The notes beneath the pieces are model-generated. The model did no database searches, was not told the origin of the DNA, and saw only the letters and a list, made by a program, of their open reading frames with translations. A DNA stretch of 64,000 nt, from contig CM059621.1 in NCBI GenBank assembly GCA_030435675.1, positions 10,602,001 through 10,666,000 of the forward strand, read 5' to 3'. Shown here in pieces: positions 48,358 through 49,878 of this stretch. The DNA is from Steinernema hermaphroditum (Eukaryota; Nematoda; Chromadorea; Rhabditida; Steinernematidae). The position numbers and the translations under genes were made by a program. The number at the start of each line of letters is the position of its first letter. Position 1 is the stretch's first letter.

Positions 48358-49878
48358 ATGCCACAAAGAGGCTCCAACGATGAGATGTTCGAGGTGGAGC
48401 AGGTCTGCGCCAGACGCGTGGCGAAGTCCGGTGAAGTACAGTATCTTCTGAAGTGGAAGGGCTACCCGATCAGCGAGAACACGTGGGAACCCGCCTCGGC
48501 CGTCCTCTGTCCCCAGCTGGTCGCCGAGTTTGAGGAGCGCCACCAGAAGAAGCGGAAGCCGAGCCCGCCACTCGAGCCCGCGCACCCAAAGCGCGCCAGG
48601 ACCGAGTCGGTGAGGGCTGCACGCCTGGACTACGACCCAAGAAGTGGCTTCGCCGGCTGCCCCAGCCGTTCTCCGGAGAAGAGCGTCGAAAAGATCCTCC
48701 GGAAGCGGATGACCATGACGAGTCGCGGGTCGAGGCTGGAGTTCCTCGTGCAGTGGAGGGGTCGACCGGAGTCGGAGAACTCGTGGGTGGAGCAGGCGGC
48801 GCTGGGCAGCGAAGAGTTGAAGGAGCTGGAGCGGAGAGAGGCCGAGGAGCGCAGATCGCGGCTGCAGAAACAGGCGGAGGCGGAGGAGACGACGAAAAAG
48901 AAGGCCGAGGCGCTGAAACTGGAGAGGGAGCGGATGCTGCGGCGAAGACAAGAAGAAGAGGCGCGAAGGAGAGAGGCCGAAGAGGTGTCCAGAAGGCGAA
49001 GAGAGGCCGAATTGGCGCTACGAAGGCAGACGGAGGCCGAGGATGCGGTCAGAAGGCGGAGACAGCAGGAGATAACTCGGAAAGAAAGGGAGGAGAAGAG
49101 GCGGAAGGCGGAGAAGGAGGCGGAGGCCAGAAGAAAGGCGAAATTGGAGATGGTGAAGAAGGTGGAGGAGCAGATGGCAGTGATCCACGAGATCAAGGTG
49201 CGGCTGGACCTGGAGAAGCAGCAGAAGAAGGGCGAGGAGCGACGTCTCTGCGGAAAGCAGCTCGAGGACCTGGTAGCCCGTCGGGAGAGGACCTCTCGCG
49301 AAGAGAAGAGTCTTCAGACGCTGGAGAAGACGATGTCGGAGACCACAAAGGAGAGCCCAGAAATCGTAGAACTCGAAGATAGCAACGAGGCCGAGGAGGC
49401 TGTGTATACGGTGGAGCAGATCGTTGGGCGCCGCTTCCGGAAGGGCCGCTTCGAGTACCTGATCAAGTGGAAGGGCTTCTCCGGCGGTCATAATTCATGG
49501 GAACCTGAGGAGAACTTGGACTGTCCCGAGATCGTCGCCGAGTTCGAGAAGGCCATCGTCCGATCCCAGAAGGCCGAATCGGAAGCGAAGGAGTCTTCCG
49601 CCGAGAGGAGCTCCTCGGGGCGCTTCTCCCTCAGAATCGCGAAGCGCGAGCGATCGAACGAGGAAGACGTTGTCGTCGAGAAGACGCCCATGGATCCCCC
49701 GAAACCGCCTTCAGCAAGGGTCGTCGGAGTGAGAGTCGTCGGCCGGGGACGCGAGTTCCTCATCGTCAACGCCGACGGCTCCTTAGAGAACGAGAAGGTC
49801 GCCGAGCTGCACGCGATGCACCCCGAACTGGCGCTCCGCTTCTACGAGTCCTACGTCCCCCACTTCCCCGTTGGCTGA
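48358..49878 (+). CDS. Multi-chromodomain HP1-like protein with long coiled coil
   Basis: Intronless 506-residue protein, predicted nuclear reader of methylated histone H3. ATG 48358 lies directly behind TCTTCAG. Chromodomain 1 (about 10-65): MFEVEQVCARRV, YLLKWKGYP, SENTWEP, with cage residues Phe11, Trp33 and Tyr36. Chromodomain 2 (about 108-160): SVEKILRKRM, EFLVQWRGRPES, ENSW; its cage is broken (Ser109, Trp133, Arg136). A Glu/Arg/Lys-rich coiled coil covers about 153-325. Chromodomain 3 (about 348-402): YTVEQIVGRR, FEYLIKWKGFSG, NSWEPEENLDCPEIVAEFE, with Tyr350, Trp371 and Phe374. A basic linker leads to a C-terminal chromoshadow-like end (about 454-505): VVGVRVVGRGREFLIVNADG and ALRFYESYVPHFP. 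Classical HP1 has one chromodomain plus one chromoshadow in about 200 residues, so this architecture is unusual. Confidence 0.85.
   Translation: MPQRGSNDEMFEVEQVCARRVAKSGEVQYLLKWKGYPISENTWEPASAVLCPQLVAEFEERHQKKRKPSPPLEPAHPKRARTESVRAARLDYDPRSGFAGCPSRSPEKSVEKILRKRMTMTSRGSRLEFLVQWRGRPESENSWVEQAALGSEELKELERREAEERRSRLQKQAEAEETTKKKAEALKLERERMLRRRQEEEARRREAEEVSRRRREAELALRRQTEAEDAVRRRRQQEITRKEREEKRRKAEKEAEARRKAKLEMVKKVEEQMAVIHEIKVRLDLEKQQKKGEERRLCGKQLEDLVARRERTSREEKSLQTLEKTMSETTKESPEIVELEDSNEAEEAVYTVEQIVGRRFRKGRFEYLIKWKGFSGGHNSWEPEENLDCPEIVAEFEKAIVRSQKAESEAKESSAERSSSGRFSLRIAKRERSNEEDVVVEKTPMDPPKPPSARVVGVRVVGRGREFLIVNADGSLENEKVAELHAMHPELALRFYESYVPHFPVG

What the first reader, a model, noticed from the sequence alone, without database searches (positions are those of the whole stretch)
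48358..49878. Three chromodomains, a long coiled coil and a chromoshadow-like end in one intronless gene
Three chromodomain units can be read directly (KWKGYP, QWRGRP and KWKGFSG cores with preceding VEQ/VEK strands and following ENTW/ENSW/NSWEP). Cages look intact in units 1 (Phe11, Trp33, Tyr36) and 3 (Tyr350, Trp371, Phe374) but broken in unit 2 (Ser109, Arg136). A charged helical region of about 170 residues separates unit 2 from unit 3, and the C-terminus (FLIVNADG, ALRFYESYV) resembles a chromoshadow. A molecule with two working methyl-lysine readers held apart by a stiff coiled coil, plus a dimerising end, could bridge nucleosomes over a distance. I know of no named HP1 with this architecture.
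Basis: partly seen in the sequence, partly recalled or inferred. Interest (0 to 1): 0.85.

Follow-up and report, generated by a model that had tools for sequence, protein, structure and literature searches.

The report
Triple-chromodomain HP1-like protein with rod
This worm-like gene seems to make a chromatin-binding protein with two intact histone-mark readers and one worn-out one, held apart by a long stiff helix and ending in a worn dimerising piece; it is an unusual version of a known protein family, heterochromatin protein 1.

Summary
The gene is real: one open frame (48358-49878, 506 codons, GC3 0.80) with three chromodomains (65.5, 35.8, 69.6 bits). Two points change. The charged middle is probably not a coiled coil: i,i+4 opposite-charge pairing is extreme (0 of 5,000 shuffles reach it) and heptad hydrophobics are not enriched, while 10 of 11 myosin-type control windows are. 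It reads as a single alpha-helix (modelled 151-312, about 24 nm) running out of chromodomain 2. The end is a very divergent chromoshadow: Pfam and a canonical profile miss it, a profile of this genome's own chromoshadows finds it, AlphaFold is unsure. Unit 1 carries a Polycomb-type non-polar clamp (M10/L50), unit 3 a half HP1-type one (V349/D388). Best reading: an HP1-like reader bridging methylated nucleosomes at a distance. HP1-like proteins with two chromodomains (Tetrahymena Pdd1, Hpl2) and proteins with 3-5 chromodomains exist; among 236 listed homologues I recognised none with three chromodomains, a chromoshadow and such a helix. Organism (Steinernema is a guess) and orthologues were not established. 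New variant of a known kind.

The parts
48358..49878 (+). complete coding region, 506 aa plus stop, single exon as far as sequence shows
48341..48357 (+). pyrimidine-rich TTTTTTTCTCTCTTCAG directly before the ATG: likely 3' splice acceptor, by trans-splicing or a 5' UTR intron (which of the two was not tested)
   Evidence: sequence; inference
48388..48555 (+). chromodomain 1, about residues 11-66: cage F11, W33, Y36; non-polar clamp M10/L50
48679..48807 (+). chromodomain 2, about residues 108-150: cage broken (S109, W133, R136); its C-terminal helix runs into the rod in the model
48808..49293 (+). rod, residues 151-312: charged single-alpha-helix-like segment, about 24 nm if fully helical
48970..49057 (+). 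30-bp-period imperfect tandem repeat inside the rod, 2.9 copies, 72% matches
49294..49404 (+). acidic low-confidence linker before chromodomain 3, residues 313-349, net charge -8 (resembles the acidic patch before HP1 chromodomains)
49405..49557 (+). chromodomain 3, residues 350-400: cage Y350, W371, F374; clamp V349/D388; HP1 type
49702..49875 (+). divergent chromoshadow-like end, about residues 449-506
   Evidence: low-confidence helices 478-487 and 489-499
49897..49902 (+). AATAAA poly(A)-signal-like hexamer after the stop (another at 49916)

Best explanation
An HP1-family-like chromatin reader and spacer of a probable nematode, most likely nuclear. Chromodomains 1 and 3 each grip a methylated histone H3 tail. 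Chromodomain 3 is HP1-type (H3K9me). Chromodomain 1 has the non-polar clamp that in known chromodomains permits H3K27me binding, so it may read H3K27me3, H3K9me3 or both. Chromodomain 2 no longer reads a mark and serves as the folded base from which a stiff, monomeric single alpha-helix of about 160 residues (about 24 nm) projects, holding the two readers apart. The divergent chromoshadow end pairs two molecules or recruits a partner. The result would be cross-linking of methylated nucleosomes that are not neighbours. Shown by computation: the open frame, three chromodomain folds, cage states, charge pattern, helix model and the weak chromoshadow signal. Inferred: nuclear role, mark specificity, rod stiffness, dimerisation and bridging.
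For: Three chromodomains above the Pfam cut-off. The AlphaFold model gives chromodomains at pLDDT about 95, 89 and 95 and one helix 151-312; Foldseek's best PDB matches are HP1alpha, CBX7 and CBX1 chromodomains. Chromodomain-only PDB entries nearest to unit 3: HP1alpha E 1.0e-20 (CBX7 1.3e-12); to unit 1: HP1alpha 1.7e-14, CDYL 2.5e-13, CBX7 2.6e-13. Cage and clamp residues: using the clamp rule passage in PMC5762428. Rod: 51 opposite against 10 like-charge i,i+4 pairs, 0 of 5,000 shuffles reach the difference; heptad z -0.6 against 3.2 to 11.0 in 10 of 11 myosin-type windows. Chromoshadow signal. Precedent for a charged 'coil' that measured as a single alpha-helix: INCENP, PMC4571873 (passages).
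Against: No expression, binding or localisation data. The chromoshadow end lacks two residues at the LVP motif of the A1 alignment and has H502 where HP1beta W170 sits (position recalled), is missed by Pfam and by a canonical profile, and is not folded confidently by AlphaFold. Unit 1's best solved match is still an HP1 rather than a Polycomb protein, by a small margin, and its best full-length entry (8uxq, E 6.1e-19) is also HP1alpha; this weakens the H3K27 reading. Residues 256-314 of the rod are more hydrophobic (25%) and could form a short coiled coil; the model's confidence falls to 74, 61 and 42 in the last blocks of the helix. No orthologue was found, so conservation of the arrangement is untested. 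The full-length model used only 14 aligned rows.
Confidence: 0.55

Rival explanations
1. One reading: the middle is a true coiled coil, so the protein is a parallel dimer through the rod and the two ends bridge nucleosomes at fixed distance.
For: The segment is strongly helical in the model. Part of it (about residues 265-306) reaches 0.5 hydrophobic at heptad a/d in a 42-residue window.
Against: Over 153-314 the a/d hydrophobic fraction is 0.22, z -0.6, against 0.41-0.67, z 3.2-11.0 in 10 of 11 myosin-type windows of the same genome; charged residues are 59%. i,i+4 opposite-charge pairing is extreme.
Confidence: 0.15
2. A chromatin anchor rather than a bridge: the chromodomains hold methylated chromatin and the C-terminus binds another structure (nuclear periphery or a partner complex), in the manner of C. 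elegans CEC-4, without dimerisation.
For: The C-terminus is a poor chromoshadow. CEC-4 is a nematode chromodomain protein without a chromoshadow whose own C-terminus is needed for its place at the nuclear envelope (PMC5788517, passages).
Against: The C-terminus does score with this genome's chromoshadows above all 1,919 window tiles. The passages read mention no extra chromodomains or rod in CEC-4.
Confidence: 0.2
3. A recently assembled, fast-changing, perhaps lineage-restricted HP1 duplicate with little selected function for the extra parts: a drifting chromodomain 2, a rod grown by short tandem duplication, and a decaying chromoshadow.
For: Broken unit 2, 30-bp tandem repeat in the rod, degenerate chromoshadow, no listed protein recognised with the same order.
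Against: The frame is open for 506 codons with strong, even GC3; cages of units 1 and 3 are intact; the i,i+4 charge order is far from what shuffling gives.
Confidence: 0.1

Closest known systems
HP1 / CBX1, CBX3, CBX5; nematode HPL-1 and HPL-2
   Same: HP1-type chromodomain after an acidic stretch, then a hinge and a C-terminal chromoshadow (chromodomain 3 onward). Foldseek's first match for residues 340-506 is HP1alpha over 163 columns, 28% identity, but rmsd 21.
   Different: Two further N-terminal chromodomains and a 160-residue helix; a divergent chromoshadow; one coding exon, while in four own-genome HP1-like genes examined the chromodomain and chromoshadow lie in different open frames (C1:15532, C3:5322, C1:4359, C5:4971); a fifth, C2:14859, has both in one frame.
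Tetrahymena Pdd1 and Hpl2/Tcd1 (two chromodomains plus chromoshadow)
   Same: HP1-like, more than one chromodomain, a chromoshadow, and a second chromodomain that lost cage residues (PMC5762428, passages).
   Different: Two chromodomains, not three; the passages read mention no single-helix rod and the word 'coiled' is absent from the main text; ciliate, so most likely convergent (inference).
Polycomb-type CBX7 / CDYL chromodomains
   Same: Non-polar clamp around the cage in unit 1 (M10/L50); close behind HP1 among the solved relatives of unit 1.
   Different: Pfam reports no further domain of those proteins in the frame.
Multi-chromodomain proteins, e.g. P0004 (Pinctada, 5), P0125 (Orchesella, 5), P0126-P0128 (Daphnia, 3)
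   Same: Three to five chromodomains in one protein (14 of 236 listed homologues).
   Different: None of the 236 has a single-helix-like 80-residue window by my test, and the one apparent three-chromodomain-plus-chromoshadow case (P0130) has its chromoshadow call overlapping a chromodomain call.
INCENP
   Same: A charged segment once called a coil that is a monomeric single alpha-helix, used as a long reach on chromatin-anchored machinery (PMC4571873, passages).
   Different: Its helix binds microtubules; it is not a chromodomain protein (recalled).

Membership tests
Chromodomain (PF00385) | profile match above the gathering score | tested here: met
   65.5, 35.8, 69.6 bits against 25.1
Chromodomain (PF00385) | chromodomain fold | tested here: met
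   AlphaFold pLDDT about 95, 89, 95; Foldseek best hits are chromodomains
Methyl-lysine-reading chromodomain | three-aromatic cage | tested here: met
   units 1 and 3 meet it; unit 2 does not (S109, R136)
Methyl-lysine-reading chromodomain | binding of methylated H3 peptide | not testable with these tools
   needs a binding assay
HP1 family | chromodomain with HP1-type (polar) clamp | tested here: inconclusive
   unit 3 has V349/D388, half polar, the same as this genome's own C1:15532 HP1 (V/D); CBX5 has E/D
HP1 family | C-terminal chromoshadow, profile match | tested here: inconclusive
   Pfam: not met in the C-terminus; canonical profile: not met; own-genome profile: met
HP1 family | chromoshadow fold | tested here: inconclusive
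   block pLDDT 37-67, only the two C-terminal helices predicted with no chromoshadow sheet
HP1 family | dimerisation and PxVxL binding by the chromoshadow | not testable with these tools
   L493 at the recalled dimer position, H502 at the recalled HP1beta W170 position, so PxVxL binding looks lost (recall plus sequence)
Coiled coil | heptad hydrophobic repeat | tested here: not met
   z -0.6 over 153-314; 10 of 11 myosin-type control windows z 3.2-11.0; a 42-residue window at 265-306 does reach 0.5
Single alpha-helix (ER/K) domain | dense i,i+4 opposite-charge pairs, few hydrophobics, helical | tested here: met
   51 against 10 pairs; 16.7% hydrophobic, 59% charged; helix 151-312
Single alpha-helix (ER/K) domain | monomeric, non-cooperative melting | not testable with these tools
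   needs CD and AUC or SEC-MALS
CHD remodellers | SNF2 helicase after tandem chromodomains | tested here: not met
   no helicase family in the frame

The most novel reading that the evidence does not exclude
A two-mark molecular ruler: one polypeptide that reads H3K27me3 (or K9/K27me3) with a Polycomb-clamped chromodomain at one end and H3K9me with an HP1 chromodomain at the other, held about 24 nm apart by a rigid single helix, and paired through a residual chromoshadow, so that it bridges Polycomb-type and HP1-type chromatin or non-adjacent nucleosomes at a set distance.
Probability: 0.2. Interest if true: 0.8.

Novelty: new variant of a known kind. Interest (0 to 1): 0.5.

Why it matters
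HP1 is usually pictured as a short hinge between one reader and one dimerising domain. A natural version with a long stiff single-helix spacer, two readers with different clamps, and a dead reader reused as the base of the spacer would let the distance dependence of nucleosome bridging, and cross-talk between H3K9 and H3K27 marks, be tested in one molecule by changing rod length.

Tried and rejected
Coiled coil: rejected for most of the rod. Charge Fourier spectrum: not informative (40 of 300 shuffles as strong). A bacterial-type promoter and terminator scan upstream found nothing and says nothing about a eukaryote. A retroelement origin of the chromodomains: Pfam finds no integrase or other mobile-element family in the frame, although an integrase-linked chromodomain does occur elsewhere in this genome; not pursued further. 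A recent internal duplication of the chromodomains: not supported, since units 1 and 3 are 43% identical while each is closer to an HP1-like gene elsewhere in the genome (50% to C3_5322, 54% to C5_4971; some compared pieces are cut at exon ends). The other single frames with two chromodomain hits are CHD-like (L029, with PHD and SNF2) or a 243-aa frame (L028); L027, two chromodomain frames side by side, I take for CHD1-like (inference). A first chromoshadow profile had pulled in chromodomains and was discarded; the seed pattern found nothing, so its profile A lines and its 'with A' lines are void. The homologue survey used a chromodomain profile from two seed sequences and a canonical chromoshadow profile that does not detect the window protein's own end, so a three-chromodomain protein with an equally divergent chromoshadow would be missed. 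Papers: 'Steinernema' with 'chromodomain' gave 0 papers; (chromoshadow domain, multiple chromodomains, HP1, nematode; at least 3 of 4) 15, (two chromodomains, chromo shadow domain, Pdd1; at least 2 of 3) 12, 1, 84 (15 listed), ('three chromodomains') 4, 456 (10 listed); from the titles and abstract openings listed I recognised no protein of this architecture. Read: passages only of PMC5762428, PMC5788517, PMC4571873 and PMC12629237.

Full report
Setting. The window is G000:C1:10602001-10666000 of a 90.6-Mb genome in 60 contigs; the five contigs C1-C5 seen in the locus list are 16.7-18.4 Mb each. From this size, the intron-split genes and the acceptor-ATG junction I take it to be a nematode, perhaps Steinernema; that is inference from recall, and the genome paper I wanted to check was not held.

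The gene. The frame 48358-49878 encodes 506 residues. It is open from 48121, with no earlier in-frame ATG. The ATG follows directly on a pyrimidine tract ending in CAG, and an AATAAA begins 19 bases past the end of the stop codon. Third-position GC is 0.80 overall and 0.77-0.87 in each of five stretches measured, rod and tail included, so the length looks coding throughout. No TTT[CT]AG acceptor lies inside and no 50-bp stretch falls below 48% GC. In four own-genome HP1-like genes that I read out, chromodomain and chromoshadow lie in different open frames; in a fifth, C2:14859, both lie in one frame.

Chromodomains. Pfam gives Chromo E 2.5e-46 with three stretches, and on the genome scale 65.5, 35.8 and 69.6 bits for units 1, 2 and 3. 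Of 32 chromodomain places found in the genome, this is the only single open frame with three; genes split by introns would not show this way. AlphaFold models the three with confidence about 95, 89 and 95, and Foldseek's best PDB matches are HP1alpha, CBX7 and CBX1 chromodomains. Cage residues are F11/W33/Y36, S109/W133/R136 and Y350/W371/F374: intact, broken, intact. By the rule quoted in PMC5762428 (residue before the first cage residue, and residue 14 after the last; passage), unit 1 has a non-polar clamp (M10/L50), said there to permit H3K27me binding, while unit 3 has V349/D388, the same as this genome's C1:15532 HP1 and half of CBX5's E/D. Against a firm K27 call, the nearest chromodomain-only PDB entry to unit 1 is still HP1alpha (E 1.7e-14), though CDYL and CBX7 are close (2.5e-13, 2.6e-13). 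For unit 3 the gap is wide: HP1alpha 1.0e-20, CBX7 1.3e-12. Unit 3 is preceded by an acidic linker, net -8 over residues 313-349, as HP1 chromodomains often are (passage). Unit 2 is weak (best E 1.9e-4, to HP1) but folded in the model.

Rod. Residues 153-336 hold 51 opposite-charge and 10 like-charge pairs at i,i+4; none of 5,000 shuffles reaches that difference, and i,i+3 is mildly enriched (177 of 5,000 reach it). Heptad a/d hydrophobics are not enriched (747 of 5,000 shuffles as high over 153-336; z -0.6 over 153-314). As a coiled-coil control I took 11 windows of 162 residues from three myosin-tail-family frames of the same genome: 10 of 11 have a/d z of 3.2 to 11.0 (the other, 1.1, lies near the start of its frame), and their i,i+4 z tops out at 4.1 against 5.4 for the rod. 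No single-helix protein was run as a positive control. The AlphaFold model has one helix 151-312, with block confidences of 87-98 to residue 290, then 74, 61 and 42. It begins where the C-terminal helix of chromodomain 2 would be, so the dead reader looks fused to the rod. This is the signature of a single alpha-helix, as measured for INCENP's former 'coil' (PMC4571873, passages). At 0.15 nm per residue the helix is about 24 nm. A part near 256-314 is more hydrophobic and could pair locally. A 30-bp-period repeat of 2.9 copies suggests that the rod grew in part by tandem duplication.

C-terminus. The Pfam model finds nothing here and a canonical chromoshadow profile gives 2.1 bits, with 23 of 3,524 scored shuffles as good. 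A profile of five chromoshadows from this same genome does find it (17.6 bits; best of 4,205 scored shuffles 9.7). A six-domain profile gives 15.9 bits, reached by 0 of 1,919 tiles of the window; the best tile (15.6) is the same stretch in another cut, and the next one has 6.9. Own-genome chromoshadows left out in turn score 20.6 to 46.3 in five of six cases and 2.8 in one, while this end scores 12.9 to 17.6 with those profiles. AlphaFold finds only two low-confidence C-terminal helices there. I read it as a divergent chromoshadow of uncertain function.

Relatives. Among 236 listed homologues, my own two-profile survey finds 14 with three or more chromodomains and 9 with two or more chromodomains plus a chromoshadow call. 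The one nominal case of three chromodomains and a chromoshadow, P0130, has its chromoshadow call overlapping a chromodomain. Only the window protein has an 80-residue single-helix-like stretch with i,i+4 z of 3 or more. Limits: the chromodomain profile came from two seeds, and the chromoshadow profile is canonical and does not see the window protein's own end, so an equally divergent relative would be missed. Tetrahymena Pdd1 and Hpl2 have two chromodomains plus a chromoshadow, and the second chromodomains of the five two-chromodomain proteins there have all lost cage residues (PMC5762428, passages). So the kind is known; the variant - three chromodomains, a dead one as rod base, a single-helix rod - I did not find in the searches named in Tried and rejected.

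Mechanism. Most likely a bridging reader: two live chromodomains about 24 nm apart on one chain, with pairing at the far end, would join methylated nucleosomes that are not neighbours. The anchor reading (CEC-4-like) stays open because the C-terminus is so divergent. Everything beyond fold and sequence is inference.

Noticed in passing
window 8169-9203, minus strand (L025): A chromodomain frame (Pfam E 2.7e-9) next to a frame with SET (E 1e-20) and a sub-threshold Pre-SET match (26.7 bits, cut-off 29.1): a SUV39/Clr4-like H3K9 methyltransferase candidate with its own chromodomain, about 39 kb from the finding. C. elegans SET-25 and MET-2 lack a chromodomain (recalled), so this lineage may keep the older form.
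   Followed up: partly
L028:3084-3812 minus (G000:C5:1468616-1469020): A 243-aa open frame with two adjacent chromodomain matches and no other family over its cut-off.
   Followed up: partly
G000 C1:15531711, C2:13200216, C3:5321969; also C1:4358851, C5:4971, C2:14859: Three chromoshadow places pass the Pfam cut-off and three more read as chromoshadows by eye: more than the two HP1s (HPL-1, HPL-2) of C. elegans, some very divergent.
   Followed up: partly
L035:896-1933 (G000:C4:1921295): A chromodomain at the end of an integrase-core open frame: a mobile-element-type chromodomain.
   Followed up: no
window 46903-47451 (+) and 49946-50569 (-): Flanking genes: an M17 leucine aminopeptidase exon upstream and a saposin-B-like frame downstream on the other strand.
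   Followed up: no
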